NCBI GenBank assembly: GCA_017307375.1
Contig: JAFKFH010000019.1
Coordinates: 62,001-126,000 of the forward strand
Direction: 5' to 3'
Source of the DNA: Alphaproteobacteria bacterium
Lineage (GTDB): Bacteria; Pseudomonadota; Alphaproteobacteria; Ferrovibrionales; Ferrovibrionaceae
Length of the DNA: 64,000 nucleotides
Shown here: positions 2,209 through 22,844 of the stretch, piece after piece
How the letters are laid out: every line of letters starts with the position of its first letter
Numbering within the stretch: position 1 is the first letter of the stretch
The notes under the pieces: model-generated
What the model was told of the DNA's origin: nothing
Database searches by the model: none
Seen by the model: only the letters and a program-made list of their open reading frames with translations
Made by a program: the position numbers and the translations under genes

Positions 2209-2225
2209 GCGCGCCCTCAAGTTGT

Positions 2226-2252: not shown

Positions 2253-2291
2253 GCGCGCAATCGCTTTTGTCCGGCTTGGCCGGTGGTCAGG

Positions 2292-7382: not shown

Positions 7383-8363
7383 TTACGCGCCGGTCTGGCG
7401 CTTCTTGCGGTACTCGTAGGTCGAATCGAAACGCTGCTTCAGATAGTCGCCCCAGGTGATCGGCGGATATTTCGGCGCCTCGCCGTCGCGATTGCAGCCG
7501 GGAATGCATTCGACCAGCGTGTGGTAGGTCGGGTCGAAGAAGAACGGGATCGAGTAGCGCTCGCGCCCCGTGGTGTTGATCACCCGGTGCGGCGTCGACG
7601 CCCAGCGGTCGTTGGTCCACCGCTTCAGCATGTCGGCGATGTTGACGACGAAGGTGCCGGGAATGTAGGGGGCGTCGATCCAGCCGCCGCCGCGCCGGCG
7701 CACCTGCAGCCCGCCGACCTCGTCCTGCGCCAGGATGGTGACGAAGCCGTAGTCGGTATGCGGCGCGATGCCGAATTCGTTCTCGGCGCGGGTCGGCGGT
7801 TGCGGCGGATAGTGCAGCAGGCGCACGAACGGCATCGGCTTGCGGAAATAGGGCAGGAAGTAGTTTTCCTCCAGCTCTAGCGCCATGGCGAAGATGCGCA
7901 GCATGGTTTCGCCGACGCCCAGTAGCGCGCCGTAATAGCTCTCGATCTCGGTGCGCAGGGCCGGCATCGCCGCCGGCCACTGGTTGGGCCCATGCAGCGG
8001 CACCCCGGCGCGGACATCGGGGTCGTCGGGGCCGAGGTCCAGGCCGGCCAGGAACGTCTCGTTGAAGTTCGGCTTCAGATCCGCCGTATAAGTAGAATTG
8101 TTGAACGGCATGTAGCCGCGGTGCGACGCGTTGACCTTGACGCTCAGCTTCTCGGCTTCGGGCAGCGCGAAGAACGCCTTGGACGCGGCGAAGGCCCGGT
8201 CGATCAGCGCCTGGTCGACGCCATGGCCGGCGATATAGAGGAAACCGACGGTCTCGGCCGCCTGCTGGACGGCGCGGGCGACACCATCCTTGTCCGACCC
8301 GTCGCGGAATCCGCCGATGTCGATGATCGGGATCTGGTCGATGGCGCTGCTGCTGTCTGACAT
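7383..8363 (-). CDS. 2-oxoglutarate/Fe(II)-dependent dioxygenase, isopenicillin N synthase family
   Basis: A 326-residue cytosolic oxygenase. A DIOX_N-type region (IPIIDIGGF, then GFLYIAGHGV near residue 40) is followed by the jelly-roll core. Iron ligands are H202 and D204 (HTDYG) and H259 (TPHRV); R269-x-S271 (RYS) is the 2-oxoglutarate anchor. I chose ATG 8363 because GGAGG lies eight bases upstream; a GTG eight codons earlier has no ribosome binding site and abuts the previous gene. The gene sits between a Liv-type and a BMP-type importer in one run, so its substrate is probably imported by one of them. Fungal thymine 7-hydroxylase belongs to the same superfamily, which makes a nucleobase substrate conceivable but unproven. 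Confidence 0.92.
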   Translation of the reverse strand: MSDSSSAIDQIPIIDIGGFRDGSDKDGVARAVQQAAETVGFLYIAGHGVDQALIDRAFAASKAFFALPEAEKLSVKVNASHRGYMPFNNSTYTADLKPNFNETFLAGLDLGPDDPDVRAGVPLHGPNQWPAAMPALRTEIESYYGALLGVGETMLRIFAMALELEENYFLPYFRKPMPFVRLLHYPPQPPTRAENEFGIAPHTDYGFVTILAQDEVGGLQVRRRGGGWIDAPYIPGTFVVNIADMLKRWTNDRWASTPHRVINTTGRERYSIPFFFDPTYHTLVECIPGCNRDGEAPKYPPITWGDYLKQRFDSTYEYRKKRQTGA

Positions 8364-8383
8364 CCGGTGTTCCTCCAAGAAGC

Positions 8384-9093
<710 letters not shown>

Positions 9094-9097
<4 letters not shown>

Positions 9098-9813
9098 GCG
9101 TCCTGCCCCAGATAGGCTTCGATCACCCTGGGGTCGCGGGTGACCTCCTCGGGCCGGCCGGCAGCGATCAGCCGCCCGGCCTCCAGCACGATGACGCGGT
9201 CGGAGACCTTCATCACCGAGGGCATGTCGTGCTCGACCAGCAGCACGCCGGCGCCGCGCGCGGCGACGGCCTTCAGGCTGGCCAGGATCTCCTCGCTCTC
9301 CGCCGGCACCAGCCCGGCCAGCGGTTCGTCGGCAAGCAGCAGATAGGGGCGGGCGGCGAAGGCGCGGGCCAGTTCCAGCTTGCGCAGCTGACCGATCGTC
9401 AGCTCGGCCGCCGGGCGATCGGCCAGGTCGGTCAGCCCGGCCAGTTCCAGCGCCTCGTCGATGATGGCCGGGCCGCGCCCGGCCTTGTTGCCGAACAGGG
9501 CGCCGACGCGGACGTTGTCGCGCACGCTGAGGCCGCGGAACGGCCGGGCGATCTGGAAGGCGCGGGCGATGCCGAGCTCGGCGATGTCGCAGGTTTCCAT
9601 GCCGTCGATGCGCTGGCCGCGGAAGGTGACGCTGCCGGCGCTGAGCGGCAGATAGCCGGTCAGCAGATTGAAGATCGTCGACTTGCCGGCGCCGTTGGGG
9701 CCGATCAGGCTGACGATCCTGCCGGCCTCGGCCGCGAAGGTGACGTCCTCGACGGCGGCGAGCTGGCCGAAGCGGCGGCCGATCCCTTCGGCCAGCAGGA
9801 GCGGTCCGGTCAT
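9094..9813 (-). CDS. Liv-type ABC importer ATPase (LivG-like)
   Basis: A 239-residue ATPase with Walker A GPNGAGKS near residue 37, Walker B LLLADEPLAGL and the LLVEHDM switch. The signature is LTIGQLRKLELARA rather than the usual LSxGQQRRLEIARA, so the second signature residue and the QQ pair are changed. The AFQIARPFRGLSV stretch is typical of LivG. It overlaps both neighbours by four bases (LivM-like upstream, LivF-like downstream). Confidence 0.93.
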
Positions 9814-10748
9814 CGCCGGGTCCTCCGCCACAGCCCGGCGACACCGTCGGGCGCGACCAGCACGACAGCGACGATCAGCAGCCCGGTGATGGCGAGGTGA
9901 TATTCCAGCAGGTCGGCCAGCACCAGCTTGGTGACCCCGGTCATGATCGCGGCGCCGATCACCGGGCCGAGCAGCGAGCCCATGCCGCCGACCAGGCTGT
10001 TGACGATCATCTCGAGGCTGAGCGACCCGCGGAACACCGAATCGGTGGTGATGTAGCCGAGATTCAGGGCATAGACCGCGCCCAGCGCGCCGGTCAGGCC
10101 GCCCGACAGCACGAAGGCGACGACCTTGAAGCGGGTGGTGGGCACGCCGAGCATCTGGGCCGCGTCCTCGTCCTCGCGGATGGCGGCAAGGCCATAGCCG
10201 AGGCGGCTGCGCGAAATGATCCAGGCGATGGCCATCACGATGGCGAGCAGCGCCAGGGCGAGCCAGTAGAAGAAGGCCTCGACCCGCATGCCCGAGGGCG
10301 CGATGTTGGGCAGCGACAGGCCGGCCGAGCCGCCGAACACCGGAAACGCCGAGACGGCTTCGCCCAGCACCAGGGCAACGGCAAGCATGGCGATGGTGAA
10401 ATAGTGGCCGCGCAGCCGCAGGATCGGCCAGGCGATCGCCGCGGCGATCACGGCGGCCGTCACCAGCCCGGCGAGCAGCCCGGCGGCGAGTTGCAGGCCG
10501 GGTGCCGCCGCCGCGACCGCGCGCAGCGTCAGCGCCGCGGCGAAGGCCCCGACGCCGACGAACGCGGTGTGGCCGAAGCTGTAATAGGCGGTGAAGCCGG
10601 CCAGCAGCCACCAGCACACCGCAAACCCGGCCGACAGGAAGATCGACAGCCCGACGCGGATGTAGAAGGCCTTCAGGAACAGGGGCAGCGTCGCCAGTGC
10701 GGCGAACAGCAGGAGCGCCAGGACGACGACGAGCAGCGTGCGCGCCAT
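9810..10748 (-). CDS. Liv-type ABC importer permease (LivM-like)
   Basis: A 312-residue inner-membrane permease with about nine hydrophobic segments. The family sequence YYSFGHTAFVGVGAFAAA is near residue 56 and the EAA-like cytoplasmic loop AIREDEDAAQMLGV about midway. I chose ATG 10748, two bases past the stop of the LivH-like gene; a start eight codons earlier would overlap that gene. The end overlaps the LivG-like gene by four bases. Confidence 0.93.
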   Translation of the reverse strand: MARTLLVVVLALLLFAALATLPLFLKAFYIRVGLSIFLSAGFAVCWWLLAGFTAYYSFGHTAFVGVGAFAAALTLRAVAAAAPGLQLAAGLLAGLVTAAVIAAAIAWPILRLRGHYFTIAMLAVALVLGEAVSAFPVFGGSAGLSLPNIAPSGMRVEAFFYWLALALLAIVMAIAWIISRSRLGYGLAAIREDEDAAQMLGVPTTRFKVVAFVLSGGLTGALGAVYALNLGYITTDSVFRGSLSLEMIVNSLVGGMGSLLGPVIGAAIMTGVTKLVLADLLEYHLAITGLLIVAVVLVAPDGVAGLWRRTRR

Positions 10749-10749
10749 T

Positions 10750-11628
10750 TCAGCGGCTCGCCTTGAAGGCACTGCCGAGAATGCCGTTCGGCCGCAGCAG
10801 CAGCGTGCCGAGCAGGATCAGGAACATCACCATGTTGGTGAACACACCGCCGAGATAGGTCTGGGTGAGGGCCGAGACGAGGCCGAGCAGCACGCCGCCG
10901 AGCATCGCGCCGCCGAGGCTGCCGACGCCGCCCAGGGTGACGACGATGAAGGCGTAGACGGTCCAGGTGACTTCCTCGGCCGGGGTGAACGGCAGCATCA
11001 TGCCGATCAGCACGCCGGAGGCCGCGGCGAAGGCCGAGCCGACGGCGAAGGTCAGCGCATAGACGGCACGGGCATCGACCCCGCACAGCCGTGCCCCCAG
11101 TTCCGACAGCGCCGTCGCCCTGATGATGCGGCCCCAGCGCGAAAAGCGCAGGAACGAGCCGAGCCCGCCGATCAGCAGCAGGCCGCAGGCAAAGGCGACC
11201 AGCCGCACCAGGTCGAACGACACGTCGCCGAGCCGGAGGTTGATGAACGAGTACGATGGGCTGATCGAGCGTACCGACGACGAGAACGCCACCGTCAGCA
11301 GGTTGAGCGCGACCAGCGTGAAGCCGAAGGTGACCAGCAGCGCCGCCACCGGGTTGCCGCGCTGGACCGCCGGCTGGATCACCAGCCGCTGGCACAGCCA
11401 GCCCAGGATGAACGCGATCAGCATCAGCGGCGGGATCGAGGCGAGTGGGTCGATGCCGAGGGTGGACCAGGCGACCAGCGCGCCGTAGGCCCCGCCGATG
11501 ACGAAGATGCCGTGGGCCAGGTTGATCACGTTCATCACGCCGAAGATCAACGAGAAGCCGACGGCGGCGATCGACAGGATGCCGCCGTAGAGCACGCCGT
11601 TGACCAGGGTCTGGAGCAGGGTGATCAT
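10750..11628 (-). CDS. Liv-type ABC importer permease (LivH-like)
   Basis: A 292-residue permease beginning with the family N-terminus (QTLVNGVLYGGILSIAAVGF), then GVMNVINLAHG near residue 30, and the ATALSELGARLCGVDARAVY coupling loop. About eight hydrophobic segments follow the LivH pattern. It lies 48 bases after the binding-protein gene. LivH/LivM pairs carry branched-chain amino acids, amides, urea or aromatic acids; here the catabolic neighbours argue for a nitrogen heterocycle or ureide. Confidence 0.94.
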   Translation of the reverse strand: MITLLQTLVNGVLYGGILSIAAVGFSLIFGVMNVINLAHGIFVIGGAYGALVAWSTLGIDPLASIPPLMLIAFILGWLCQRLVIQPAVQRGNPVAALLVTFGFTLVALNLLTVAFSSSVRSISPSYSFINLRLGDVSFDLVRLVAFACGLLLIGGLGSFLRFSRWGRIIRATALSELGARLCGVDARAVYALTFAVGSAFAAASGVLIGMMLPFTPAEEVTWTVYAFIVVTLGGVGSLGGAMLGGVLLGLVSALTQTYLGGVFTNMVMFLILLGTLLLRPNGILGSAFKASR

Positions 11629-11676
11629 GCCCGCCCCGCCGCAACCGATACGGTCATTGCCCGGTGCCCGGCCGGG

Positions 11677-12927
11677 TCAGCGCTTCGACCAGGGCTCGAT
11701 CGGCCAGAGCGGTGCGGCCTCGCGCAGGCGCTCGGGCGAAATCACCTTGATCTCGCCTTTCTGGACCTGGGTGACCGCCGACCCCATCAAGACCGGATCG
11801 CCGTCGCCTTCCGGCGTGAACTTGATGCGGCCGTAGAGCGATTCGATGTCGAGCTTGGCCAGCGCATCGCGCACCGCGATCGGATCGTCGATCCGGCCGA
11901 CCTGCTTCAGGACCTCGACATAGGCGACGATGCAGGCCGCCGCGGTGCCCTGATGGTAGATCAGCGGCAGGGTGTTGTTGGCCCGGTAATATTCGGCGAA
12001 CTTGGCGGTCGAGCCGAAGATCGGATCGGTATAGGGGAAGCTCGGCGACCAGGTCGAGATGCAGGTGATGCCGTCGGCATACTTGCCCAGGGCTTCGCGG
12101 AAGCTCGCCGCCTGCGGCCCGAGCGAGGTGAACAGCATCTTCACGTCGGTGCGGCTTTGCGCCATCTGGCGCGCGATCAGCAGCGAGTTCTGGTCCGAGG
12201 TCAGGCACATCACGACGTCGGGCTGCTCCTCGCGCACCGAGGTCAGCACGGCCGAGACGTCCTGCAGCTGTGCCGGCAGCTCGAACACCTTCACGACCTG
12301 CATGCCCTTTTCCTTCAGGCGCTCGATGACGCCCAGGCCTTGCGGCTTGGAGAAGGGGTCGTTGGTGTAGACCACCATGAAGGTCTTCGGCTTGGGCGTC
12401 AGCGCCTCGAAGGCATCGACCGCCGGGAAGGCCGAGCGCGAGGCGCGCGGATACATCCCGAAGACGAACTTGTAGCCCTGGGTGAAGATCGGATCGCCGC
12501 CGCCGCCGCCGCCGGCCTGCACCATCGGGCGCCGCGCCCGTTCGGTCAGGGCGACTTGCGGCAGGATGATCGGCGTCGAATAGGAACCGAGGAACAGCTG
12601 GACGTCGTCGTCGATCTGCTTTTGCAGCAGCGTCGTCGCGCGCTGCGGGTCGGAGGCGTCGTCGACCAGCTTCAGGTCGAGGCGATGGCGCTTGCCGCCG
12701 ATCTCGACGCCGCCCTGCACCTCGTTGACGTATTTGACGACGGTCTGATAGCCGGCATGGACGCTCTGCCCGATTTCGGCCCAGCGGCCGCTGAACGGGA
12801 TGGTGCCGCCGAATGTGACCGTGGGCTGCGATTGCGCCGCGCTGCGGCCGGCCCGGCCGAGTGCCGCAATGCCGATGGCGCCGGACAACGCCTTGATCGA
12901 TCCGCGCCGCGAGATGCGATACGCCAT
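11677..12927 (-). CDS. Liv-type ABC importer substrate-binding protein
   Basis: A 416-residue periplasmic binding protein of the Peripla_BP_6 family. The N-terminus has a twin-arginine-like export signal (SRRGSIKALSGAIGIAALG), then FGGTIPFSGRWAEIG, the first ligand-binding lobe. A run of six glycines near residue 140 (AGGGGGGDP) is unusual and probably a flexible surface loop. The ribosome binding site GGGGGAG lies about five bases before the ATG. It heads the long minus-strand run, starting 203 bases from the divergent catabolic operon, and presumably sets its substrate range. Confidence 0.93.
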   Translation of the reverse strand: MAYRISRRGSIKALSGAIGIAALGRAGRSAAQSQPTVTFGGTIPFSGRWAEIGQSVHAGYQTVVKYVNEVQGGVEIGGKRHRLDLKLVDDASDPQRATTLLQKQIDDDVQLFLGSYSTPIILPQVALTERARRPMVQAGGGGGGDPIFTQGYKFVFGMYPRASRSAFPAVDAFEALTPKPKTFMVVYTNDPFSKPQGLGVIERLKEKGMQVVKVFELPAQLQDVSAVLTSVREEQPDVVMCLTSDQNSLLIARQMAQSRTDVKMLFTSLGPQAASFREALGKYADGITCISTWSPSFPYTDPIFGSTAKFAEYYRANNTLPLIYHQGTAAACIVAYVEVLKQVGRIDDPIAVRDALAKLDIESLYGRIKFTPEGDGDPVLMGSAVTQVQKGEIKVISPERLREAAPLWPIEPWSKR

Positions 12928-13130
12928 GAGTCTCCCCCTCGTTTGCCAACGCCCCTGAAGCGCTTATCGGCCGATCGCTCATCCGGCGACCTGCTTTGGT
13001 AGTCGGCGTTGTGTTTCAATCACCGCTACGTCGATATTCTATTTGACATGCCGGAACGCGGCAAGGCAAATTTCAAAAAGAATATTGCGGTTCTCGTATA
13101 TGATACGAAGGACCAGACAGGGGGCATCGG
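12928..13130. promoter_or_regulatory. Divergent promoter region between importer and catabolic operon
   Basis: The 203 bases between the Liv-type importer (minus) and the hydantoinase operon (plus) are much richer in A and T than the flanks. For the plus strand a perfect -35 TTGACA (13043-13048) is followed after 17 bases by GCAAAT (13066-13071). ATATTC (13034-13039) and GAATAT (13080-13085) form an inverted repeat that brackets this promoter. A second palindrome lies at 13094-13108. The layout suggests coordinated control of both arms by the XRE-cupin regulator. Confidence 0.6.
13094..13108. promoter_or_regulatory. Palindrome TCGTAT-ATG-ATACGA, candidate XRE-cupin operator
   Basis: Perfect 6-bp arms with a 3-bp spacer, ending 22 bases before the start codon of the first XRE-cupin gene and downstream of the predicted promoter. 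A repressor bound here would block transcription of the catabolic operon. Confidence 0.45.
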
Positions 13131-13766
13131 ATGGCTAGCCAGAAACAGGCGCCGGCTGCGAAGGGGCGACCGCAGGGACGCCCGGCGGGCTTCGGCGAGG
13201 AACAGCTTCGCTCGCTCGGCCGGCGGCTGCGGCAGCTGCGCGAGGCGCGCAACTGGTCGCTGAAGAAACTTGCCGCCGAAAGCGGCGTCAGCGTCGCGGC
13301 AATCCAGAAGATCGAAGTCGGCGACGCGAACCCGAGCCTGCTGACCGTGCTGGCCATCACCGAGGTGCTGGGCGAGCCGGTCGACCGCCTGATCGATGCC
13401 TCGCGCGAGGCGGGACGCACCGTCAACCTGGTGCGCGGCACCCTGCCGATGCGGACCGGCGAGGCCGCGGGGCTGACCGGCGATCTCGCCAAGCCGCTGA
13501 TGGAGGCTTACCTGATCCCGGTCGGCGCGCAGGAAACCGTCGACCTGCGTGGTCGGGGCGTCGAGGGGGCGGCCTTCGCCTATGTGCTGGACGGCACGGT
13601 CGGCATCGCCGACCCGTCCGCCGGACTGCGCACCTTGCGGGCCGGCGATGCCGTGCATCTCGACGAGGATGTCGCCCTCACCCTGACCGGCCAGGTCGCG
13701 CGGCGCAGCCATGTGCTGTGCCTGGCCGATCGTCGCGACCCCACCGAGAGCATGGAGCCGAAATGA
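13131..13766 (+). CDS. XRE-family regulator with C-terminal cupin domain
   Basis: A 211-residue regulator. After a basic, disordered N-terminus (residues 1-22), a helix-turn-helix of the XRE/HipB type covers about 29-90 (SLKKLAAESGVSVAAIQKIE). A cupin-2 barrel follows at about 125-200 and probably senses the pathway substrate. A GGGGG ribosome binding site lies about eight bases upstream of the ATG. Its stop overlaps the hyuA start (ATGA), so it is the first gene of the catabolic operon and likely autoregulated. Confidence 0.92.
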   Translation: MASQKQAPAAKGRPQGRPAGFGEEQLRSLGRRLRQLREARNWSLKKLAAESGVSVAAIQKIEVGDANPSLLTVLAITEVLGEPVDRLIDASREAGRTVNLVRGTLPMRTGEAAGLTGDLAKPLMEAYLIPVGAQETVDLRGRGVEGAAFAYVLDGTVGIADPSAGLRTLRAGDAVHLDEDVALTLTGQVARRSHVLCLADRRDPTESMEPK

Positions 13767-15880
13767 CCGCAGCCGCCAGGAAGTATCTCGTCGCGACCGA
13801 CGTCGGCGGCACCTGCACCGACACCATCGTCTTCGCGGCCGGCGAACCGGTCAGGCTGGGCAAGGCCTTGTCGACACCGCCCGATTTTGCGACCGGCGTG
13901 CTCGATTCGATCCGCTCGGCGGCGACCGGCATGGGCATGACGCTCGAAGCGTTGCTGTCGCAGACCTCGCTGTTCATGCACGGCTCGACCGTGGTGGACA
14001 ACACCGTGCTGACCCGCGACGGCTCGCGCACCGGCCTGCTGACGACCGAGGGCTTCGAGGATACCGTGCTGGTCACCCGCGGCGCCTATGGCCGCTGGGG
14101 CGGGCTGACCGAGGATCGCATCAAGCATCCGGTCAAGACCGAGCGTGCCCCCGCGCTGGTCGATGCCGACGCCATCGTCGGGATCGCCGAACGCGTCGAC
14201 TACAAGGGCGCGATCCTGCGCGAGCTGGACGAGGCGCAGGTCGAGCAGGCGGTGCGCTACCTGATCGATCGCCAGAAGGTCGAGGCGATCGCGGTCTCGT
14301 TCCTGTGGTCGTTCTACAACCCGACCAACGAGCGCCGGGTCAAGGCGCTGATCGAGCGCGTGGCGCCGGGCGTCTACTGCACGCTGTCGAGCGACATCGC
14401 GCCGGTGCCCGGCGAATACGAGCGCAGCTCGACCACGGTGATCAACGCCTATGCCGGCCAGATCACCCGCGCCTATCTGTCCAGCCTGGAAACCTTGCTG
14501 GCCGATACCGGCTATCGCGGCCCGGTGATGGTGATGCAGGGCTATGGCGGCTTGCTACCGGCACAGGAAGCGGCCGAGCGCTCGATCGGCATGCTGGAAT
14601 GCGGCCCCGCCGCCGGCGTCATCGGCAGCCGGGCGCTGGGCCAATTGCTCGACCAGCCCGACGTGATCGCGACCGACATGGGCGGCACCACCTTCAAGGT
14701 GTCGGTGATCCAGGGCGGCACCATCGAATATGCCAGGGAGCCGATGGTCGACCGCTTTCACTATACCCAGCCCAAGATCGAGGTGGTGTCGATCGGGTCG
14801 GGCGGCGGTTCGATCATCTCGCTCGAACCCGGGTCGAACGCGCCGCGCATCGGGCCGCGCTCGGCCGGCTCGCGGCCCGGCCCGGTCTGCTACGGCCTGG
14901 GCGGGACCGAGCCGACGCTGACCGACGTGTTCATGCTGATCGGTTACATGGATCCCGGCATCTTCCTCGGCGGCAGCATGAAGCTCGACCGCGAGCGGGC
15001 GCGTGCGGTGTTCGACGAGAAGATCGCCCGGCCGCTCGGCCTGTCGGTCGAACAGGCCGCGATCGGCGTCTATCGCGTCGCCACCGCCCAGATCACCGAT
15101 TTGATCCGCCAGATCACCGTCGAGCGCGGCCTGGATCCGCGCGACTTCGTGCTGCACTCCTTCGGCGGGTCCTGCGGCATGGTGGCCGGCATGTTCGGCG
15201 CCGAACTCAACGTCCGCCGCATGGTCGTGCCCTATACCGCGTCGGTGAATTGCGCCTTCGGCCTGATTTCGGCCGACATCGTGCACGAATACGCGACGAC
15301 CGCGCTGCTGCCGGTGCCGTCGCCGGCCGATGCGGTCAACCGGCTGTTCGCCCCGATGGCCGAGAAGGCGGTGAAGCAGTTGGCCGAGGAAGGCTTTGCC
15401 GGCGACCGCGTGCGTCTCGACTGGTCGATCGACCTGCGCTATTCCCGCCAGGTGCACGAGGTGACGACGCCGGTGCGCGGGCGCGGGCCGCTCGACGAGG
15501 CGGCGCTGGCCCAGGTCGTCAACGACTTCGAGGCGCTGTACGAACGCAAGTACGGCAAGGGCTCGGCCTATCGCGAGGCCGGGATGGAGATGACCCAGTT
15601 CCGCCTGACCGCGCGCGGGCTGATGGAGCGGCCGCAGATCGAGGCCGAGGCGACCGGCGGCCCCGATGCCGCCGCCGCCCGCATCGGCCGCCGGCCGATC
15701 TTCGTCGAGGCCGCCGGCGCGATGGTCGAATCCGACATCTACGATTTCGAACGGCTGAAGCCCGGCAATGTCGTGACCGGGCCGGCGGTCATCCATACCC
15801 CGATCACCACCATCGTGCTGCAGCAGGGCCAGACCGGCACGCTGGACGGGTACCGCAACGTCATCGTCGACTTCGTCTGA
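13763..15880 (+). CDS. hyuA: Hydantoinase/oxoprolinase subunit A
   Basis: A 705-residue protein of the HyuA/N-methylhydantoinase A family, the ATP-binding subunit of ATP-dependent hydantoin and oxoproline hydrolases and of acetone/acetophenone carboxylases. The actin-like ATPase phosphate loop DVGGT is at residues 13-17, the second phosphate motif DMGGTTFKVS lies in the middle, and GSGGGSI follows. I chose ATG 13763, which overlaps the regulator stop by four bases and has GGAG upstream. It works with HyuB immediately downstream. Length and motifs are complete. Confidence 0.94.
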   Translation: MTAAARKYLVATDVGGTCTDTIVFAAGEPVRLGKALSTPPDFATGVLDSIRSAATGMGMTLEALLSQTSLFMHGSTVVDNTVLTRDGSRTGLLTTEGFEDTVLVTRGAYGRWGGLTEDRIKHPVKTERAPALVDADAIVGIAERVDYKGAILRELDEAQVEQAVRYLIDRQKVEAIAVSFLWSFYNPTNERRVKALIERVAPGVYCTLSSDIAPVPGEYERSSTTVINAYAGQITRAYLSSLETLLADTGYRGPVMVMQGYGGLLPAQEAAERSIGMLECGPAAGVIGSRALGQLLDQPDVIATDMGGTTFKVSVIQGGTIEYAREPMVDRFHYTQPKIEVVSIGSGGGSIISLEPGSNAPRIGPRSAGSRPGPVCYGLGGTEPTLTDVFMLIGYMDPGIFLGGSMKLDRERARAVFDEKIARPLGLSVEQAAIGVYRVATAQITDLIRQITVERGLDPRDFVLHSFGGSCGMVAGMFGAELNVRRMVVPYTASVNCAFGLISADIVHEYATTALLPVPSPADAVNRLFAPMAEKAVKQLAEEGFAGDRVRLDWSIDLRYSRQVHEVTTPVRGRGPLDEAALAQVVNDFEALYERKYGKGSAYREAGMEMTQFRLTARGLMERPQIEAEATGGPDAAAARIGRRPIFVEAAGAMVESDIYDFERLKPGNVVTGPAVIHTPITTIVLQQGQTGTLDGYRNVIVDFV

Positions 15881-15894
15881 CCGGAGGACAGCCC

Positions 15895-17706
15895 ATGGAT
15901 CCGATCACCTTCTCGATCATCCGCCATCGCCTGTTCCGCGTCGTGGAAGAAGCGGTGATGACGCTCAAGCACGTGTCGGGCAGCGCCATCACCAACGAAG
16001 GGCACGACCTGATGGTCTCGCTCTATCGTGCCGACGGCTCGCTGCTGATGGGCGGCGTCGGGTTCCTGCACCACCTGACCAGTGCTGCCGAAGCCTGCAA
16101 GGCGATCATCCGCCGCTTCCAGGGGCAGATCCACGAAGGCGACCTGTTCCTGCTGAACGATCCCTATACCGCGGCGCTGCATACCTCGGACATCTACCTG
16201 ATCGCGCCGATCCACTATCAGGGCAGGCTGGTCGCCTGGAGCGCCTGTTTCGTCCATGTCTTCGACATCGGGGCGATGAACCCCGGCGGCTTCGCCCCGG
16301 ACGCGCAGGACATCTTCACCGAGGGGTTCTCGTCGCCCGGCCTGAAGCTGATCGATCGCGGCGAGATGCGCCAGGACGTCTGGGACACCATCCTGAACAT
16401 GGTGCGCGGGCCGGAAATGGTCGCCCTCGACCTGCGCTCGATGATCGCCTGCAACAATGTCGCGGGCGAGCGGCTGGTCGCGCTGTTCGAGAAATACGGT
16501 ACCGACACGGTCGACGAGGCCTGCCGGATGCTGATCGAACAGTCCGAGCAGCGCCTGCGCGAACGGCTGCGCGAGCTGCCGGACGGCCAGTGGCAGTCGC
16601 GGCAGTATCTCGAGGTCAAGGGCGAGACCTACAAGGTCTGCCTGACCATGCGCAAGCAGGGCGACGAACTGGTCTTCGACTTCACCGGCTCGTCGCCGCA
16701 GTCGAAATACTCGGTCAACTGTTCGAAGTGGGCGTCGCTCGGCGGGTTGTTCGCGCCGCTGTTCCCGCTGCTCTGCTATGACATCACCTGGAACGAAGGG
16801 GTGATCCGGCCGATCCGGATGATCGCGCCCGAGGGAACGATCGTGAACTGCACCCGGCCGGCGCCGGTCTCGGTCGCCACCGTCGGCGCGATCCAGTCGG
16901 TCAACAATGCCGCCTGCGCCACCATCGGCAAGATGCTGGCGGCCAGCGAGCGTTACGCCGAGGAATCCACCGCGGTCTGGCATGCCAATCATTTCGCCAT
17001 CTTCATGTTCGGCACCAACCAGCGCGGCGGGCTGTCGATCGGCATCCTGACCGAAACCTTCGCCGGCGCCGGCGGCGCCCGCCATGTCGGCGACGGCGTC
17101 GACATCGGCGGTGAAGTGCCGAACCCGATCTCGCGCATGGCCAATGTCGAGACGATCGAGGCGACCTTCCCGATCCGCTATCTGTTCCGCCGCCGCCTGA
17201 AGGATTCGGGCGGGCCGGGGCGGCATCGCGGCGGCACCGGCGGCGAGATGATGATCGTCGCCCATGACGCGCCCGACGGCGGCATCGACTACGTCGTCTC
17301 GGGCAAGGGCACCAGGTTCCCGCAGAGCGACGGGCTGGCCGGCGGCTATCCCGGCGCGCTGAACGACTATGTCTGGGTCCATGCCGACGACGAGGCGGGC
17401 GCGCCGCTGTTCGCGCGCGATCTCGGCGGTGCCGGCGGCCGGCAGGAACCGATCTCCTGGGGGGTGTTTCCGCTGCGTGGCCGCGACGGCCTTTATGTCC
17501 GCTGGAACGGCGGTGGCGGCCTGGGCGATCCGCTCGACCGCCCGGCCGATCAGGTCGCGCGTGACGTCGCGGCCGGGGTGGTCTCGCGCGAGGCCGCGGC
17601 CGAGGTCTATGGCGTGGTGCTGGCCGATGGCCTGGCCGACGCGGATGCCACCGGGGCGCGGCGGGCGCAATTGCGCCAGGCCCGCCTGGCGCGGGAGGTC
17701 GCGTGA
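15895..17706 (+). CDS. hyuB: Hydantoinase/oxoprolinase subunit B
   Basis: A 603-residue protein of the HyuB family. The N-terminus DPITFSIIRHRLF, the metal-site region FLLNDPYTAALHTSDI near residue 85, and the glycine-rich C-terminal part GGPGRHRGGTGGE are as in known HyuB subunits. A perfect GGAGG lies nine bases before the ATG, 14 bases after the hyuA stop. HyuA and HyuB together hydrolyse or carboxylate cyclic amides or ketones in an ATP-dependent manner. The next, small gene overlaps its stop (TGATG). Confidence 0.94.
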   Translation: MDPITFSIIRHRLFRVVEEAVMTLKHVSGSAITNEGHDLMVSLYRADGSLLMGGVGFLHHLTSAAEACKAIIRRFQGQIHEGDLFLLNDPYTAALHTSDIYLIAPIHYQGRLVAWSACFVHVFDIGAMNPGGFAPDAQDIFTEGFSSPGLKLIDRGEMRQDVWDTILNMVRGPEMVALDLRSMIACNNVAGERLVALFEKYGTDTVDEACRMLIEQSEQRLRERLRELPDGQWQSRQYLEVKGETYKVCLTMRKQGDELVFDFTGSSPQSKYSVNCSKWASLGGLFAPLFPLLCYDITWNEGVIRPIRMIAPEGTIVNCTRPAPVSVATVGAIQSVNNAACATIGKMLAASERYAEESTAVWHANHFAIFMFGTNQRGGLSIGILTETFAGAGGARHVGDGVDIGGEVPNPISRMANVETIEATFPIRYLFRRRLKDSGGPGRHRGGTGGEMMIVAHDAPDGGIDYVVSGKGTRFPQSDGLAGGYPGALNDYVWVHADDEAGAPLFARDLGGAGGRQEPISWGVFPLRGRDGLYVRWNGGGGLGDPLDRPADQVARDVAAGVVSREAAAEVYGVVLADGLADADATGARRAQLRQARLAREVA

Positions 17707-17984
17707 TGTCGCGCCGGCGTTTCTCCGACACCCTGGTCCTGGTCGACGGCCAGATCTGCTGCCGGGCCTGCGACCGCGCCGTCGCGCCGGCCGCCGGCTC
17801 GTGGAAGGAGGCCGCGGCGCTGACCACCGTGCCGGTCGCCTCGCTGCCCGGCGCCGGCCTCGGCACGGACAGCCGGATCGTGCTGCGCCGCTTCGCCTGC
17901 CGGGGGTGCGGGGCGCTGCTTGAAACCGAGGTTGCCCTGCCCGAGGATCCGTTCCTCGAAGATCGAATCGACCTGGTGGGGTAG
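17706..17984 (+). CDS. Small four-cysteine protein resembling acetone carboxylase gamma subunit
   Basis: A 92-residue protein with two cysteine pairs, CCRAC near residue 19-23 and CRGC near 67-70, spaced like a zinc ribbon. The second pair and the following GALLETEVALP resemble the C-terminal metal site of acetone carboxylase gamma subunits (AcxC type). The ATG shares one base with the hyuB stop, so it is coupled to HyuAB and is probably its third subunit. I infer the similarity from motif and position only. The next gene starts four bases after its stop. Confidence 0.8.
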   Translation: MSRRRFSDTLVLVDGQICCRACDRAVAPAAGSWKEAAALTTVPVASLPGAGLGTDSRIVLRRFACRGCGALLETEVALPEDPFLEDRIDLVG

Positions 17985-17988
17985 GCTT

Positions 17989-18597
17989 ATGGTACGGCGC
18001 AAGGCGGGGCAGGCGGCAGAGGCGCTGTCGCCCTATGAGACCGAGCAGGTCGGCGAACGGCTGCGCGCGTTGCGGCTGGGCCGGGCGCTGACCATCAGCG
18101 CGCTTTCCGAGCTGTCGGGCGTGCCGTCCTCGACCATTTCCAAGATCGAGAACGGCCAGTTGCGCCCGAGCCTCGTGCACGCGATCAACCTGGCCGAGGC
18201 GCTCGAGGAGAATCTGGGCTTTCTGATCAGCCGCTATCGCGACCGGCCCGAGCCGGTCGTGGTGGTGCGGGCCCGCGAGCGGTCGACGATCCATTACGGC
18301 GACATGGGCCTGACGCTGCAGGACCTGAACGGCCACTTCAAGCCGGGCGTGCTCGAATCCCGCGTCGGCATCCTCGAGCCCGGCGCCCATTCCGGTATCG
18401 ACGCGATGACCCATCAGGGCGAGGAATTCTGCTACGTGATCGCCGGGGCCATCCGCTATCGCGTCGCCGACGAGATCGTCGAGCTGACGGCCGGCGACTA
18501 TCTGCAATTCAAGAGCGACATCCGTCATTCCTGGGAAAACGCCCATGCCGGCGAAACCCGGGTGCTGTGGGTGTTCTCCAACGGCCTATCGTTCTGA
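17989..18597 (+). CDS. Second XRE-family regulator with cupin domain
   Basis: A 202-residue regulator with an N-terminal helix-turn-helix (residues about 18-72, ISALSELSGVPSSTISKIEN) and a C-terminal cupin-2 domain (about 105-200, with SGIDAMTHQGEEFCYVI and the ending HSWENAHAGETRVLWVFS). It has the same architecture as the first regulator of the operon but is strongly diverged. GGGG lies about eight bases before the ATG. In related families the cupin binds a small amine or acid. Its place inside the operon suggests it senses an intermediate. Confidence 0.92.
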   Translation: MVRRKAGQAAEALSPYETEQVGERLRALRLGRALTISALSELSGVPSSTISKIENGQLRPSLVHAINLAEALEENLGFLISRYRDRPEPVVVVRARERSTIHYGDMGLTLQDLNGHFKPGVLESRVGILEPGAHSGIDAMTHQGEEFCYVIAGAIRYRVADEIVELTAGDYLQFKSDIRHSWENAHAGETRVLWVFSNGLSF

Positions 18598-18609
18598 GGA
18601 ATCCCTCTC

Positions 18610-19293
18610 ATGCACAATGTTTCCATCCGACCGGAAATCGTCGCGCGCGTCATGGCCCGCCGCGGCCGGGTCCACTGGTTCGACACCCTCGATCCGGCCA
18701 GCACCGCGCTGGTCGTCATCGACATGCAGAGCACCTTCTGCGCCCCGGGCGGCCCGGCCGAGGTGCCGACCTCGCGCGGGATCGTCGACAACATCAACCG
18801 CCTGTCCGCGGCGGCGCGCCAGCGCGGCATGCCGGTCATCTGGGTCCTGCACGCCAACACCCACTGGCAGGGGCGCAGCGACTGGGAACTGTTCTTCAAC
18901 AACGTCGTCGCCGACGAGGTGAAGGCCCGCACGATCGAAAGCCTGGCCGCCAATCGCCAGGACGTGTGGTCCGGTCTGGTCACCGAATCGCACGACCTCG
19001 TGGTGATGAAGAACCGCTACAGCGCGCTGATCCAGGGCGCCTCGACGCTGGAGCGCCAGTTGCGCAACATCGGCATCGACACCGTGCTGATCGCCGGCAC
19101 CAAGACCAATGTCTGCTGCGAGGCGACGGCGCGCGACGCGATGATGCTCGACTTCCGCACCGTCATGGTGTCCGACTGCTGCGCCGCGCTGTCGGACGAC
19201 GAGCACCGCGCCACGCTCGAAACCTTCATCCAGCAGTTCGGCGACGTGATGACGGCCGACGAGGTCATCGCCTGTCTCGACCGCAAGCCATGA
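18610..19293 (+). CDS. Isochorismatase-family cysteine amidohydrolase
   Basis: A 227-residue cytosolic hydrolase of the isochorismatase/N-carbamoylsarcosine amidase/RutB fold. The catalytic triad is visible: D38 (VVIDMQSTF), K134 (VMKNRYSA) and C169 (GTKTNVCCEATARDA). The cis-peptide region GTKTN precedes the nucleophile. In an operon with HyuAB, it fits an enzyme that cleaves an N-carbamoyl or ureido product to CO2, ammonia and an amino acid or acid. The start is 12 bases after the regulator, and its stop overlaps the FAD subunit start (ATGA). Confidence 0.93.
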   Translation: MHNVSIRPEIVARVMARRGRVHWFDTLDPASTALVVIDMQSTFCAPGGPAEVPTSRGIVDNINRLSAAARQRGMPVIWVLHANTHWQGRSDWELFFNNVVADEVKARTIESLAANRQDVWSGLVTESHDLVVMKNRYSALIQGASTLERQLRNIGIDTVLIAGTKTNVCCEATARDAMMLDFRTVMVSDCCAALSDDEHRATLETFIQQFGDVMTADEVIACLDRKP

Positions 19294-20129
19294 CCGCGGT
19301 CGCCTACCACCGCCCGGCCTGCCTCGACGACGCGCTGGCGCTGCTGGCCGCCGACGAGGATGCCCGGCCGCTGGCGGGCGGCCAGACGCTGGTGCCGATG
19401 CTGAATCTCGATCTGCTGGCGCCGACGGCCATCGTCTCGCTGGCCGATCTCGCCGATCTGCGCGGCATCGCCGCCCTGGCCGACGGCAGCATCCGCATCG
19501 GCGCGATGGAAACCCATGCGCGTATTGCCGCAAGCCGCATCTTTGCCGCCGGGCAGGCGCTGGTGCCGCGTGCCGCCGGCCATATCGCCAGCCCGGCGAT
19601 CCGCAATTTCGGCACGATCGGCGGTGCCTGCGCCCATGGCGATCCGGTCTCCGACTGGCCGGTGGCGCTGGTCGCCGCCGATGCGCGGATCGAGATTGCC
19701 GGCCCGGCCGGCCGGCGCGGCGTGGCGGCCGCCGATTTTTTCCTCGGTTTCCTCACCACCGCCCTCGAACCGGGCGAGATCGTCACCGCGATCGTCGTTC
19801 CGCCCGTGCCCGGCCGGGCGATCCATCTGCGCTATTCGCGCATCGATTCGGACTACGCCACCGTGATCGTGGCCGGCGCCGCCGATATCCGCGACGGCAT
19901 TTGCCGTTCGGTGCGACTGGCGGTCGGCGCCTGCGGCCCGGTGCCGGTGCGCCTCGCCGCGGTCGAGGACTTGCTGACCGGCCGCCCGCTCGAACCGGCC
20001 CTGGTCGCCGCGGCCGGCAGGATGCTGGCCGAGGCCATCGATCCGCTGGACGACGTGCGCGGCAGTGCCGCCTATCGCCGGCGCATCCTGCCGGGCCTGG
20101 TCGCCCGCGCGCTGGCCGGCGTGGCATGA
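19290..20129 (+). CDS. Molybdenum hydroxylase FAD-binding subunit (CoxM/XdhB type)
   Basis: A 279-residue subunit with the FAD_binding_5 fold (PLAGGQTLVPMLNLDLL near residue 27, then GHIASPAIRNFGTIGGAC near 97-114) and the CO-dehydrogenase flavoprotein C-terminal domain. The TIGG motif contacts the FAD pyrophosphate. It passes electrons from the 2Fe-2S subunit to an acceptor. It overlaps the amidohydrolase and the 2Fe-2S gene by four bases each, so all three hydroxylase subunits are translationally coupled. Confidence 0.94.
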   Translation: MTAVAYHRPACLDDALALLAADEDARPLAGGQTLVPMLNLDLLAPTAIVSLADLADLRGIAALADGSIRIGAMETHARIAASRIFAAGQALVPRAAGHIASPAIRNFGTIGGACAHGDPVSDWPVALVAADARIEIAGPAGRRGVAAADFFLGFLTTALEPGEIVTAIVVPPVPGRAIHLRYSRIDSDYATVIVAGAADIRDGICRSVRLAVGACGPVPVRLAAVEDLLTGRPLEPALVAAAGRMLAEAIDPLDDVRGSAAYRRRILPGLVARALAGVA

Positions 20130-20581
20130 CCGCGCGCCTGACCGTCAACGGCCGGCCTTGCGACCTGCCCGAACAGGGCACCGCCACCTTGCTCGACCTC
20201 TTGCGTGACCAGCTGATGCTGACCGGGGCCAAGCGCGGCTGCAATTATGGTGTCTGCGGCACCTGCAGCGTCCTGATCGACGGGATGCTGGGGCGCGCCT
20301 GCCTGACGCTTGCCGCCGATTGCGCGGGGCGATCGGTGACGACGGTCGAAGCCCTCGACGCCGATGGCAGCCCCGATCCGATCCAGCGCTGCCTGGTCGA
20401 GGCCGGGGCGGTGCAATGCGGCTTCTGCACCCCGGCGATGGTGCTGGCGGCCCGGGCGCTGCTCGATGCCAATCCGCGGCCCAGCCGGGCGGAGATCGTC
20501 GCGGCCATCTCGGGCAATATCTGCCGCTGCTCGGGTTATGGCGCGATCGTCGAGGCGATCGCGGCGGCCGCCCATGGCTGA
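20126..20581 (+). CDS. Molybdenum hydroxylase 2Fe-2S subunit (CoxS/XdhC type)
   Basis: A 151-residue electron-transfer subunit with all eight cluster cysteines. C39, C44, C47 and C59 form the plant-ferredoxin-type cluster (RGCNYGVCGTC). C98, C101, C133 and C135 form the second cluster (CGFC and CRC) next to the molybdopterin. Length and spacing are standard for the three-subunit xanthine dehydrogenase family. It overlaps the Mo subunit gene by eight bases. Confidence 0.95.
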   Translation: MTARLTVNGRPCDLPEQGTATLLDLLRDQLMLTGAKRGCNYGVCGTCSVLIDGMLGRACLTLAADCAGRSVTTVEALDADGSPDPIQRCLVEAGAVQCGFCTPAMVLAARALLDANPRPSRAEIVAAISGNICRCSGYGAIVEAIAAAAHG

Positions 20582-22844
20582 GTTCGCGGTCGTCGGCAGT
20601 TCGGCCCCGCGGCTCGACGGGCTGGAGAAGGCGACCGGGCGCGCCGTCTATGTCGACGACATGACGCGGCCGGGCCTGCTGCACGGCGCGGTGCTGCGCT
20701 CGGCCTACGCCCATGCCCGGATCGTCGCGATCGATACCGCGGCGGCGCTGGCCCTGCCCGGCGTGCATTGCGTGCTGACCGGCGAGGATTTCCCGCATCG
20801 CTATGGCGCCTTCGTGCAGGACGAGGTCGCGCTGGCCCGCGACCGCGTACGCTATGTCGGCGAGCCGGTCGCGGTGCTGGCCGCCGAAACCCCGGCCCTG
20901 GCCCGCCAGGCCGCCGCGCTGATCGCGGTCGACTACGAGGAACTGCCGGCGGTGATGACGCCGGAGGAGGCGCTGGCCCCCGATGCCCCGCTGGTGCACG
21001 CGGATTTTGCCGGCTATGCCCGGCGTGTCGCCGTGCCGCTGCCGCCCAATGTCTGCGCAGCGACGACGATCAGCGAAGGGGATGTCGACGCGGCCTTCGC
21101 CGGATGCGACGTGGTGGTCGAGGGCACCTACCGGACGCAGGCGCAGGTGCATTGCTATCTCGAACCCTGCGGGGCGCTGGCCGAGGCCGATGCCGCCGGC
21201 AAGGTGACGATCTGGTCGTCCTGCCAGTCGGTCTTCCGGGTCCAGGCGACGGTGGCCGAGATCCTGGGCCTGCCGATGGCGCGCATCCGCGCCGTCGCCG
21301 CCAAGGTCGGCGGCGCCTTCGGCGGCAAGTCCGACGTCACGGTCCAGCCCTTGGCCGCAGCCCTTGCCCTGCGCACCCGCCGGCCGGTCAGGCTGGTGCT
21401 GACCCGCGACGACGATTTCATGATGATGCGCACCCGCCATCCGGCCACGGTCTGGATGAAGACGGGCGCGATGGCCGACGGGCGCCTCGTCGCCCGCGCC
21501 GCGCGGCTGACCCTGGACGGCGGTGCCTATGCCGAGGATTCGTCGGCGGTGCTGGGCTTTGCGCTGCTGATCGCCCGCGGCCCCTATCGCATCGAGCATG
21601 TGCGGATGGAAGGCCGGGTCGCCTACACCAACCGGCTGCGTGCCGCCGGTTTCCGCGGCTATGGCAATCCCCAGGTGACGTTTGCCGGGGAATGCCAGAT
21701 CGACGAGATCGCCGCCCGGCTCGGCCGCGATCCGCTCGACCTGCGCCTGCAGAACGCGGTGCGCGCCGGCGACGACTGGGTCGGCGGCCAGCGCATCGAG
21801 GCCTGCGGCCTGGTCGACTGCCTGGAACGGCTGCGCGCGGCATTGCCGCCGGCCGCGCCCGGGCGCGGGATCGGGGTTGCCTGCGTCGCCCATATCTCCG
21901 GCATTCTCTCGACCAGTGCGATCGTGCGGGTGCTGGAGGATGGCACGGTGACGCTGTCGACCGGCGCGGTCGACCTGGGCGAAGGCGCCGATACCGTGCT
22001 GGCCCAGATCTGTGCCGAAACCCTCGGCCTGCCGCTCGACCGCATCAACTATGCCGTGCCCGACACCGACGGTTCGCCCTACAACTGGTCGACCGGCGGG
22101 TCGCGCGTGACCTACATGGTCGGGCGCGCGGTCACGGCGGCGGCGGGCCAGGCCCGCGACCGGCTGTTCGGCCATGCCGCCGAGATGCTGGAATGCGCGG
22201 CCGGCGACCTCGAGCTGCGGCCGGGCGGCCGCGTCGGCATCGCCGGGGTTCCGGGGCCCGAGATCACCTTCCGCGACATTTCGGCCCGCGCCCATTGGGC
22301 GGTCGGCGGCCCGATCATCGGCAGTGCCTCGGTGATGTTCGAGGGCGGCGGCTTCGACCCGAAGCGCAGCGCGGTGACCGGCAACGGCATCGGCAAGCTC
22401 GGCGCCTTCGTCTTCGGTGCCCAGGCCGCCGAGGTCGAGGTCGACGCGGTGACCGGCCGGATCGCGGTCAGCCGGCTGTGGGCCGCCCACGATGTCGGCC
22501 GTGCCATCAACCCGACCGCGGTCGCCGGCCAGATCGCCGGCGGCGTCGCCCAGGGCCTGGGCTATGCCCTCTACGAGGATCTCCGCTTCGACGGGCCGAA
22601 CCCGGCCAACCCGACCCTGATGGACTACAAGGTTCCCGGTGCGACCGAGATGCCGGAGATCATCCCGATCATCGTCGAGCATCCGGAACCCTCGGGCCCG
22701 TTCGGCGCCAAGGGCATCGGCGAACCGCCGCTCGTGCCGGTGGCGCCGGCGATCGCCAATGCGGTGGCCGCCCTGCACGGCGTCAGGCTGCGGACCCTGC
22801 CGCTGACGCCCGAGCGCGTGCTGGCCGCGCTGGACGAGGCCTGA
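20574..22844 (+). CDS. Molybdenum hydroxylase Mo-cofactor subunit (CoxL/XdhA type)
   Basis: A 756-residue catalytic subunit of the xanthine dehydrogenase superfamily. Ald_Xan_dh_C-type N-terminus (RLDGLEKATGRAVYVDDM), cofactor-binding motifs GGAFGGKSD and AAGFRGYGNPQ, and the catalytic glutamate in GAKGIGEPPLVP near the C-terminus are all present. The active-site loop of CO dehydrogenase (AYRCSFR) is absent, so it is a hydroxylase, not a CO dehydrogenase. The substrate is likely an N-heterocycle given the HyuAB and amidohydrolase genes upstream. It is the last gene of the operon; no maturation (XdhC/MobA-like) gene is in the window. Confidence 0.93.
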   Translation: MAEFAVVGSSAPRLDGLEKATGRAVYVDDMTRPGLLHGAVLRSAYAHARIVAIDTAAALALPGVHCVLTGEDFPHRYGAFVQDEVALARDRVRYVGEPVAVLAAETPALARQAAALIAVDYEELPAVMTPEEALAPDAPLVHADFAGYARRVAVPLPPNVCAATTISEGDVDAAFAGCDVVVEGTYRTQAQVHCYLEPCGALAEADAAGKVTIWSSCQSVFRVQATVAEILGLPMARIRAVAAKVGGAFGGKSDVTVQPLAAALALRTRRPVRLVLTRDDDFMMMRTRHPATVWMKTGAMADGRLVARAARLTLDGGAYAEDSSAVLGFALLIARGPYRIEHVRMEGRVAYTNRLRAAGFRGYGNPQVTFAGECQIDEIAARLGRDPLDLRLQNAVRAGDDWVGGQRIEACGLVDCLERLRAALPPAAPGRGIGVACVAHISGILSTSAIVRVLEDGTVTLSTGAVDLGEGADTVLAQICAETLGLPLDRINYAVPDTDGSPYNWSTGGSRVTYMVGRAVTAAAGQARDRLFGHAAEMLECAAGDLELRPGGRVGIAGVPGPEITFRDISARAHWAVGGPIIGSASVMFEGGGFDPKRSAVTGNGIGKLGAFVFGAQAAEVEVDAVTGRIAVSRLWAAHDVGRAINPTAVAGQIAGGVAQGLGYALYEDLRFDGPNPANPTLMDYKVPGATEMPEIIPIIVEHPEPSGPFGAKGIGEPPLVPVAPAIANAVAALHGVRLRTLPLTPERVLAALDEA

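What the first reader, a model, noticed from the sequence alone, without database searches (positions are those of the whole stretch)
7383..22844. Candidate new ureide/N-heterocycle catabolic system with its own importers
A divergent locus joins, on one side, Liv-type and BMP-type importers around a 2-oxoglutarate oxygenase and, on the other, a coupled operon XRE-cupin, HyuA, HyuB, small cysteine protein, XRE-cupin, isochorismatase-type amidohydrolase and a three-subunit Mo hydroxylase. Seen directly: the gene order, four-base overlaps and intact catalytic residues. Known: HyuAB open cyclic amides with ATP; isochorismatase-fold amidases cleave N-carbamoyl products; Mo hydroxylases add oxygen to heterocycles; fungal thymine 7-hydroxylase is an IPNS-like oxygenase. 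Inference: import, hydroxylation, ring opening and ureido cleavage form one pathway. Creatinine/methylhydantoin, oxidative pyrimidine (barbiturate-type) and purine substrates are all possible.
Basis: partly seen in the sequence, partly recalled or inferred. Interest (0 to 1): 0.75.

Follow-up and report, generated by a model that had tools for sequence, protein, structure and literature searches.

The report
Three-subunit hydantoinase-like enzyme with amidase
A bacterial gene cluster that probably imports, oxidises and opens nitrogen-containing ring compounds; its core is a widespread but uncharacterised enzyme that looks like a hydantoinase yet carries a small subunit so far known from carbon-dioxide-adding enzymes.

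Summary
The genes are real and placed as described. The 93-residue 'small cysteine protein' is a homologue of the gamma subunit of acetone/acetophenone carboxylase. It accompanies this HyuAB subfamily in 78 of 80 related loci (the other two are cut by contig ends) and is fused to HyuB in two haloarchaea and two actinomycete MAGs. Published family criteria give hydantoinases only alpha and beta. In trees HyuA and HyuB form their own branch, apart from caprolactamase/N-methylhydantoinase and from the carboxylases. The conserved module is HyuA-HyuB-gamma plus an isochorismatase-type cysteine amidase (62 of 80 at 50% identity or more). The BMP importer is a probable orthologue of the one downstream of the module in 25 of 80 loci. 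The Mo hydroxylase and the 2OG oxygenase are optional extras (8 of 80 each, 7 together). The Mo subunit lacks the xanthine-dehydrogenase specificity residues. The likeliest role is catabolism of an N-heterocycle: oxidation to a cyclic imide or ureide, ATP-driven opening, amide cleavage. A carboxylase function is not excluded; the substrate is unknown. I rate it a new variant of a known kind.

The parts
13131..13766 (+). XC1, XRE-type regulator (cupin half visible in relatives)
   Evidence: HTH_3 8e-15; Cupin_2 in 14 of 19 aligned members; relatives in 19 of 80 loci
13763..15880 (+). HyuA-type alpha subunit, 705 aa, ASKHA-type ATPase
   Evidence: PF01968 8e-82; best model caprolactamase alpha 519 bits, cut-off 1000, not met; own clade with the other alphas of this subfamily
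15895..17706 (+). HyuB-type beta subunit, 603 aa, metal site D38/H96/D99/H121
   Evidence: PF02538 2e-124; own clade
17703..17984 (+). gamma subunit, 93 aa, four cysteines, of the acetone/acetophenone-carboxylase type
17989..18597 (+). XC2, XRE-cupin regulator
   Evidence: Cupin_2 2e-15 and HTH_3 2e-10; relatives in 23 of 80 loci
18610..19293 (+). isochorismatase-fold cysteine amidohydrolase, triad D38-K134-C169
19290..20129 (+). Mo hydroxylase FAD subunit
   Evidence: PF00941 2e-46
20126..20581 (+). Mo hydroxylase [2Fe-2S] subunit
   Evidence: PF01799 3e-27
20574..22844 (+). Mo hydroxylase Mo subunit; base Glu kept, xanthine-specific Glu/Arg absent
7383..8387 (-). 2-oxoglutarate/Fe(II) oxygenase, IPNS/thymine-7-hydroxylase superfamily
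8384..12927 (-). Liv-type ABC importer (livK, H, M, G, F)
   Evidence: livK 70-90% identical beside the module in L010, L011, L013, L074
2950..7351 (-). BMP-type ABC importer (SBP, ATPase, two permeases), probable orthologue of the importer downstream of the module elsewhere
   Evidence: SBP at 60% identity or more in 25 of 80 loci
13034..13085 (.). promoter/operator candidate between the two divergent operons: 16-nt inverted repeat (88%), TTGACA-like box
   Evidence: one arm kept in L010 and L074, TTGACA by eye also in L011 and L013; no control for chance

Best explanation
The locus is a catabolic island for an N-heterocyclic compound (pyridine, pyrimidine or cyclic imide/ureide type). Shown: the genes, the alpha-beta-gamma make-up and its conservation, the link to the cysteine amidase and to the BMP importer. 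Inferred: the compound is taken up by the BMP and Liv importers, hydroxylated beside the ring nitrogen by the Mo enzyme (and, for some precursors, trimmed or hydroxylated by the 2OG oxygenase) until the ring is a lactam, cyclic imide or ureide. HyuA phosphorylates the carbonyl oxygen with ATP, the activated ring passes to the metal site of HyuB and is opened by water, with gamma as a structural or gating zinc-ribbon subunit. The primary amide or carbamoyl group set free is hydrolysed by the cysteine amidase, giving ammonia and an acid. In some relatives the acid is then made a CoA thioester (AMP-forming ligase) and handled by a crotonase. XC1 and XC2 would sense an intermediate.
For: Core module: gamma in 78/80 and amidase at 50% identity or more in 62/80 loci, by record titles mostly Alpha-, Beta- and Gammaproteobacteria; gamma also in a Bacillus and fused to HyuB in haloarchaea and actinomycetes. 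HyuB metal tetrad and HyuA ATP motifs intact. Amidase model closest to an uncharacterised cysteine hydrolase, then RutB, triuret/biuret hydrolase and maleamate amidase, with N-carbamoylsarcosine amidase lower. Importer link. N-heterocycle-like neighbours: NCS1 symporter over cut-off, TRZ/ATZ-type aminohydrolase below cut-offs, deaminase fold. Relatives of the Liv genes and oxygenase in two genomes with an allantoinase/cyclic-imidase-type gene and no HyuAB in the stretch read (L158, L161; model scan of L158 only). A crotonase of 54% or more in 8 of 80 loci and L151, next to an AMP ligase in L011, L022, L024, L025, L026, L151. The fungal nicotinate pathway joins a Mo hydroxylase, a T7H-like oxygenase, cyclic-imide opening and an amidase (PMC9304392, passages and section 15).
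Against: Gamma is published as absent from every hydrolase complex, which speaks for a carboxylase. Mo hydroxylase and oxygenase were not found in 72 of 80 loci each (partly because contigs end). 13 of 80 loci show no isochorismatase-type gene (L063, L075 and L083 end early). The window's genome has no close crotonase (best 37%) and its best ligase match is 50% over part of the protein, both unlinked. No substrate evidence of any kind.
Confidence: 0.5

Rival explanations
1. HyuAB-gamma is an ATP-dependent carboxylase, a third type beside acetone and acetophenone carboxylase. It adds CO2 to a ketone, enol or amide of the substrate; CoA ligase and crotonase process the carboxylated acid; the amidase acts on an amide elsewhere in the molecule.
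For: Gamma subunit of carboxylase type, gene order alpha-beta-gamma as in acxABC; beta separated from caprolactamase and N-methylhydantoinase; best Foldseek match of the fused beta-gamma model is acetophenone carboxylase, narrowly; an AMP-ligase-like gene (30-36% to the ligases of other loci) between HyuB-gamma and HyuA in both actinomycete loci; a beta-keto-acid cleavage enzyme in 5 of 80 loci (the one copy scanned is over its cut-off).
Against: The amidase partner in most loci fits hydrolysis better; HyuB length (603 aa) and the best profile scores (caprolactamase, below cut-off) are hydrolase-like; the trees are unrooted, so they do not join the branch to the carboxylases.
Confidence: 0.27
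2. Two pathways side by side: HyuAB-gamma plus amidase plus BMP importer is one; Liv, oxygenase and Mo hydroxylase serve another compound.
For: Liv plus oxygenase relatives occur without HyuAB in the stretches read (L158, L161); Mo relatives (51-58%) form another group (93/89) in an operon with a protein that may be NicX-like, an alpha/beta hydrolase and Liv genes; 72 of 80 HyuB loci show no Mo and 72 no oxygenase relative.
Against: Mo genes overlap the amidase gene and sit in one operon; Mo and oxygenase occur together in 7 of 80 HyuB loci, by record titles from four or more lineages (Fisher 2e-8, not corrected for kinship); 8 of 10 HyuB-positive against 6 of 374 HyuB-negative alphaproteobacterial genomes have a Mo relative (see the caveat in the full report).
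Confidence: 0.18
3. An ordinary hydantoinase (alpha-beta) pathway for hydantoin, methylhydantoin or creatinine, with the small protein of no importance.
For: HyuA/HyuB domains; N-carbamoylsarcosine amidase among the fold relatives.
Against: Gamma is kept in all uncut relatives and fused to HyuB in four; joining the branch with N-methylhydantoinase or caprolactamase is rejected (AU p 0.0003 and 0.004).
Confidence: 0.05

Closest known systems
ATP-dependent caprolactamase CapAB / N-methylhydantoinase (PMC8453981, passages; PDB 6yra, 7hk5)
   Same: alpha ATPase with the same motifs, beta with the same four metal ligands, similar beta length
   Different: hydrolase complexes are described without gamma; separate branch
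Acetone carboxylase (alpha-beta-gamma) and acetophenone carboxylase (PMC5214803, passages and section 7; PDB 5m45, 5svb, 5l9w)
   Same: gamma subunit with four cysteines; gene order alpha-beta-gamma as in acxABC
   Different: gamma only 93 aa (129 and 168 in the PDB chains); beta shorter and 21-22% identical in the Foldseek alignment; no amidase is named in the operon description read
Fungal hxn nicotinate pathway (PMC9304392, passages and section 15)
   Same: combination of Mo hydroxylase, T7H-like 2OG oxygenase, ring opening of a cyclic imide, amidase
   Different: ring opener is related to a deacetylase-fold cyclic imidase, amidase resembles FAAH; no sequence comparison made here; analogy only
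RutB, biuret/triuret hydrolase, maleamate amidase, N-carbamoylsarcosine amidase
   Same: fold and Asp-Lys-Cys triad
   Different: 20-29% identity in the alignments; no curated cut-off met

Membership tests
ATP-dependent hydantoinase/oxoprolinase (Hyd branch) | only alpha and beta subunits | tested here: not met
   gamma in 78 of 80 loci, 2 cut; fused in four; criterion
ATP-dependent hydantoinase/oxoprolinase (Hyd branch) | falls in the Hyd branch of the family tree | tested here: not met
   AU rejects a clade with CapB or N-methylhydantoinase; long branches present, two characterised hydrolases only
ATP-dependent hydantoinase/oxoprolinase (Hyd branch) | ring-amide hydrolysis with ATP | not testable with these tools
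   needs enzyme
Acetone/acetophenone carboxylase | gamma subunit with four cysteines | tested here: met
Acetone/acetophenone carboxylase | subunit lengths and equivalog models of Apc/Acx | tested here: not met
   HyuA 390 of 1500 bits (ApcC model), HyuB 194 of 1500 (ApcD model); no Acx model listed; gamma 93 aa against 129 and 168 in PDB
Acetone/acetophenone carboxylase | bicarbonate carbon enters the product | not testable with these tools
   needs enzyme
Xanthine dehydrogenase | Glu802/Arg880/Glu1261 equivalents (bovine numbering and roles recalled) | tested here: not met
   first two absent, base Glu present; the genome's true XdhB (1259 bits, cut-off 849.5) has all three
RutB / biuret hydrolase | curated model cut-off | tested here: not met
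   79 of 378 and 61 of 370 bits
RutB / biuret hydrolase | cysteine-hydrolase triad and fold | tested here: met

The most novel reading that the evidence does not exclude
[quoted passage not shown] It would be a CO2-using entry to N-heterocycle catabolism spread over Proteobacteria, Bacillota, Actinomycetes and haloarchaea.
Probability: 0.2. Interest if true: 0.85.

Novelty: new variant of a known kind. Interest (0 to 1): 0.55.

Why it matters
Databases name these proteins 'hydantoinase', and published rules tell carboxylase from hydrolase partly by the gamma subunit. A widespread branch that keeps gamma but travels with an amidase breaks that rule. It gives a direct test of what gamma does and of how lactam hydrolysis and ketone carboxylation evolved from each other. 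It also points to a bacterial route for nitrogen heterocycles that my literature searches did not find described.

Tried and rejected
Xanthine/purine role for the Mo enzyme: rejected on active-site residues. BMP importer as the putative vitamin B6 importer: 115 of 400 bits, not met. Neighbourhoods of 4 of the 794 plasmid records with a relative of the amidase (H1, H2, H3, H5) held ABC or tripartite tricarboxylate transporter genes and no HyuAB-gamma module by annotation; L008 has an acetone carboxylase operon several kb away and L009 a HyuA-type gene with DUF917; they did not name the substrate. Oxygenase relatives were in 27 of 385 genomes; the 17 loci read had mixed neighbourhoods and no single theme. 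The genome-level Mo association (8/10 against 6/374) is partly carried by Mo paralogues of other groups, so it shows a shared lifestyle more than one operon. Riboflavin/lumichrome route: in PMC12746152 'hydantoin' and 'isochorismatase' do not occur in the main text. Isonicotinate: one search listed 9 papers, none with such genes by title and abstract start. The fused beta-gamma model is weak (pLDDT 66.5) and is used only as support. VIA-align listing: the rows are isochorismatase-fold proteins of several activities; no finer function can be read from it. PMC4016543: outline and abstract only, not used.

Literature searches for this gene set, open-licence PMC only: searches found no paper; 9 listed; 15; 15 of 31; 3; 6; 9; 15 of 16. 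Judged from titles and abstract starts, and from passages where said, none describes a gamma-containing hydantoinase branch.
Full report
What is there. It lies in a 7.5-Mb genome of 41 contigs; the nearest named HyuB relatives are in Vineibacter terrae and Reyranella sp. CPCC 100927, 91% identical. Reading-frame overlaps and catalytic residues are as stated in the observation check.

The core module. One scan for HyuB gave 94 relatives; the tool kept the best 80 as loci L010-L089. I mapped all window genes on them (tblastn matches over 45 bits). HyuA at 40% or more: 78 of 80. Amidase at 50% or more: 62 of 80; any isochorismatase-type gene: 67 of 80. BMP SBP at 60% or more: 25 of 80. livK at 60% or more: 4 of 80 (L010, L011, L013, L074). 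Mo genes: 8 of 80. Oxygenase: 8 of 80. Mo and oxygenase together: 7 of 80. Many loci end early, so the misses are upper bounds; in the Liv-type loci the held DNA stops close beyond the oxygenase or lacks room, so a BMP importer there could not be judged.

The small protein is a gamma subunit. Pfam gives Acetone_carb_G just over its cut-off (21.3 against 21), and in 25 of 26 aligned members. The profile of these 26 finds the gamma-type subunits of acetophenone carboxylase (2e-7) and acetone carboxylase (7e-7) in the PDB, aligning the cysteine pairs. Four cysteines, W34, K35, F64, E76 and L85 are invariant in the 26. Searching the 161 sequences held at that time, the window included (HyuB matches under 350 residues dropped), a gamma was within 6 kb of 87 of 89 HyuB homologues of 60% or more (the two without, L075 and L083, are cut by contig ends), and in 4 of 4 at 40-60%, where it lies in the same ORF as HyuB (two haloarchaea, two actinomycete MAGs). 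Of 12 homologues under 40%, 10 had none; the other two are an annotated acetone carboxylase (L008) and a second HyuB in L048, whose hit is the main module's gamma. These rows are not independent; several come from the same genome or contig under two names. A model of the fused chain, weak at mean pLDDT 66.5, matches the beta-type subunits of acetophenone carboxylase, N-methylhydantoinase, acetone carboxylase and caprolactamase, and separately the gamma chains.

Where the branch lies. Published criteria (PMC5214803, section 7 read): hydantoinases have alpha and beta only, gamma is absent 'in any Hyd complex', acetone carboxylase is alpha-beta-gamma. The window's enzyme has the gamma and gene order of acetone carboxylase and a beta length nearer the hydrolases. 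In a 37-row beta tree the gamma-bearing rows are one clade (100/99), the carboxylases another (95/88), and hydrolases plus background a third side (100/99). The alpha tree agrees: 98/97 for the subfamily, 96/93 for the background (only L008 stands for the carboxylases there). With three groups and no root this shows a separate branch, not kinship to carboxylases. In a 23-row set, forcing the subfamily together with CapB or N-methylhydantoinase is rejected (p 0.004 and 0.0003), with the caution that long branches are present and the question was put after seeing the first tree.

The amidase. Triad D38-K134-C169 invariant in 65 of 65 rows, the window and 64 locus copies within 5 kb of HyuB. The confident model (pLDDT 91.7) is closest to an uncharacterised cysteine hydrolase, then RutB, triuret and biuret hydrolase and maleamate amidase; N-carbamoylsarcosine amidase and nicotinamidases follow. 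No curated model is met.

The Mo hydroxylase. Against the genome's own true xanthine dehydrogenase the Mo subunit lacks the Glu and Arg that hold xanthine and keeps the base Glu (residue roles recalled). In a 35-row tree the HyuB-linked Mo subunits group together (91/92, with one row from an oxygenase-TRAP locus), except that of G024, which is also L076. Another group (93/89) sits in a recurrent operon with a protein that may be NicX-like (by eye; the L141 copy has no NCBIfam hit), an SRPBCC protein, an alpha/beta hydrolase and often Liv genes. Among 385 alphaproteobacterial genomes, HyuB of this subfamily is in 11 and a Mo relative in 15 at E 1e-180 or better; leaving out the window's own genome, 8 of 10 HyuB-positive and 6 of 374 HyuB-negative genomes have a Mo relative (Fisher 1e-11). 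Several of those Mo copies are of other groups and unlinked, and some genomes are congeners.

Hints to the substrate. NCS1 nucleobase symporter (371 bits, cut-off 353) and a Rieske-domain protein beside the module in Pandoraea terrae; a cytidine-deaminase-fold protein after the amidase in 5 gammaproteobacterial loci (one copy scanned); a TRZ/ATZ-type aminohydrolase in L032, below every cut-off, and amidohydrolases and amidases in haloarchaea (by eye); creatininase-like genes upstream in the actinomycete loci (by eye). A crotonase recurs in L011, L018, L022, L024-L026, L038, L042 and L151, next to an AMP-forming ligase in L011, L022, L024-L026 and L151. The window's genome has neither close by. 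Two genomes have relatives of the Liv genes and oxygenase with a gene like allantoinase PuuE between them (L158: 88 bits, cut-off 425; L161 by its likeness). The A. nidulans nicotinate pathway has a Mo hydroxylase, a T7H-like 2OG oxygenase of unsettled role, a cyclic imidase related to PuuE and an amidase (PMC9304392). This is why I favour imide or ureide opening of an oxidised N-heterocycle, and why pyridines belong on the list as much as ureides.

What is shown and what is not. Shown by calls: gene content, conservation, gamma homology, separate branch, importer link. Inferred: every reaction and the order of steps. Caprolactamase itself needs bicarbonate (PMC8453981, passages), so hydrolase and carboxylase are not far apart and the rival stays serious.

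Regulation. Between the operons lies a 16-nt inverted repeat (88%) around a TTGACA-like box, partly kept in L010 and L074; no test of function and no control for chance.

Noticed in passing
L085, L087, L088, L089 (HyuB ORFs): HyuB and gamma share one ORF in two haloarchaea and two actinomycete MAGs; in both actinomycete loci an AMP-ligase-like gene lies between HyuB-gamma and HyuA.
   Followed up: partly
L141 (G000:C28:116001-136000), L143-L147, L149, L153, L156, L159: A recurrent operon of a Mo hydroxylase (51-58% to the window's), an SRPBCC protein, a family possibly NicX-like, an alpha/beta hydrolase and often Liv genes, also in the window's genome; probably another heteroaromatic pathway. 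L144, L156 and L159 carry further HyuAB genes nearby.
   Followed up: partly
L158, L161: Liv importer and oxygenase relatives with a PuuE/cyclic-imidase-type gene between livK and livH.
   Followed up: partly
window 411-2834 (-): A second BMP-type binding protein (411-1547) with a GntR-type ORF overlapping it (1366-2220) and a 180-aa ORF, next to the BMP permeases (by eye).
   Followed up: no
window 13034-13085: Inverted repeat ATATTCTATTTGACAT/ATTTCAAAAAGAATAT in the divergent promoter region; TTTCAAA-type boxes upstream of XC1 in L022, L026, L065, L076 with up to 4 mismatches, no control for chance.
   Followed up: partly
window 26321-26394 (-): Lone tRNA-Gly(CCC) downstream of the island; could be checked as an integration site.
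   Followed up: no
window 28697-35055 (+): Two large ORFs that look by eye like an AddB/AddA double-strand-break repair pair.
   Followed up: no
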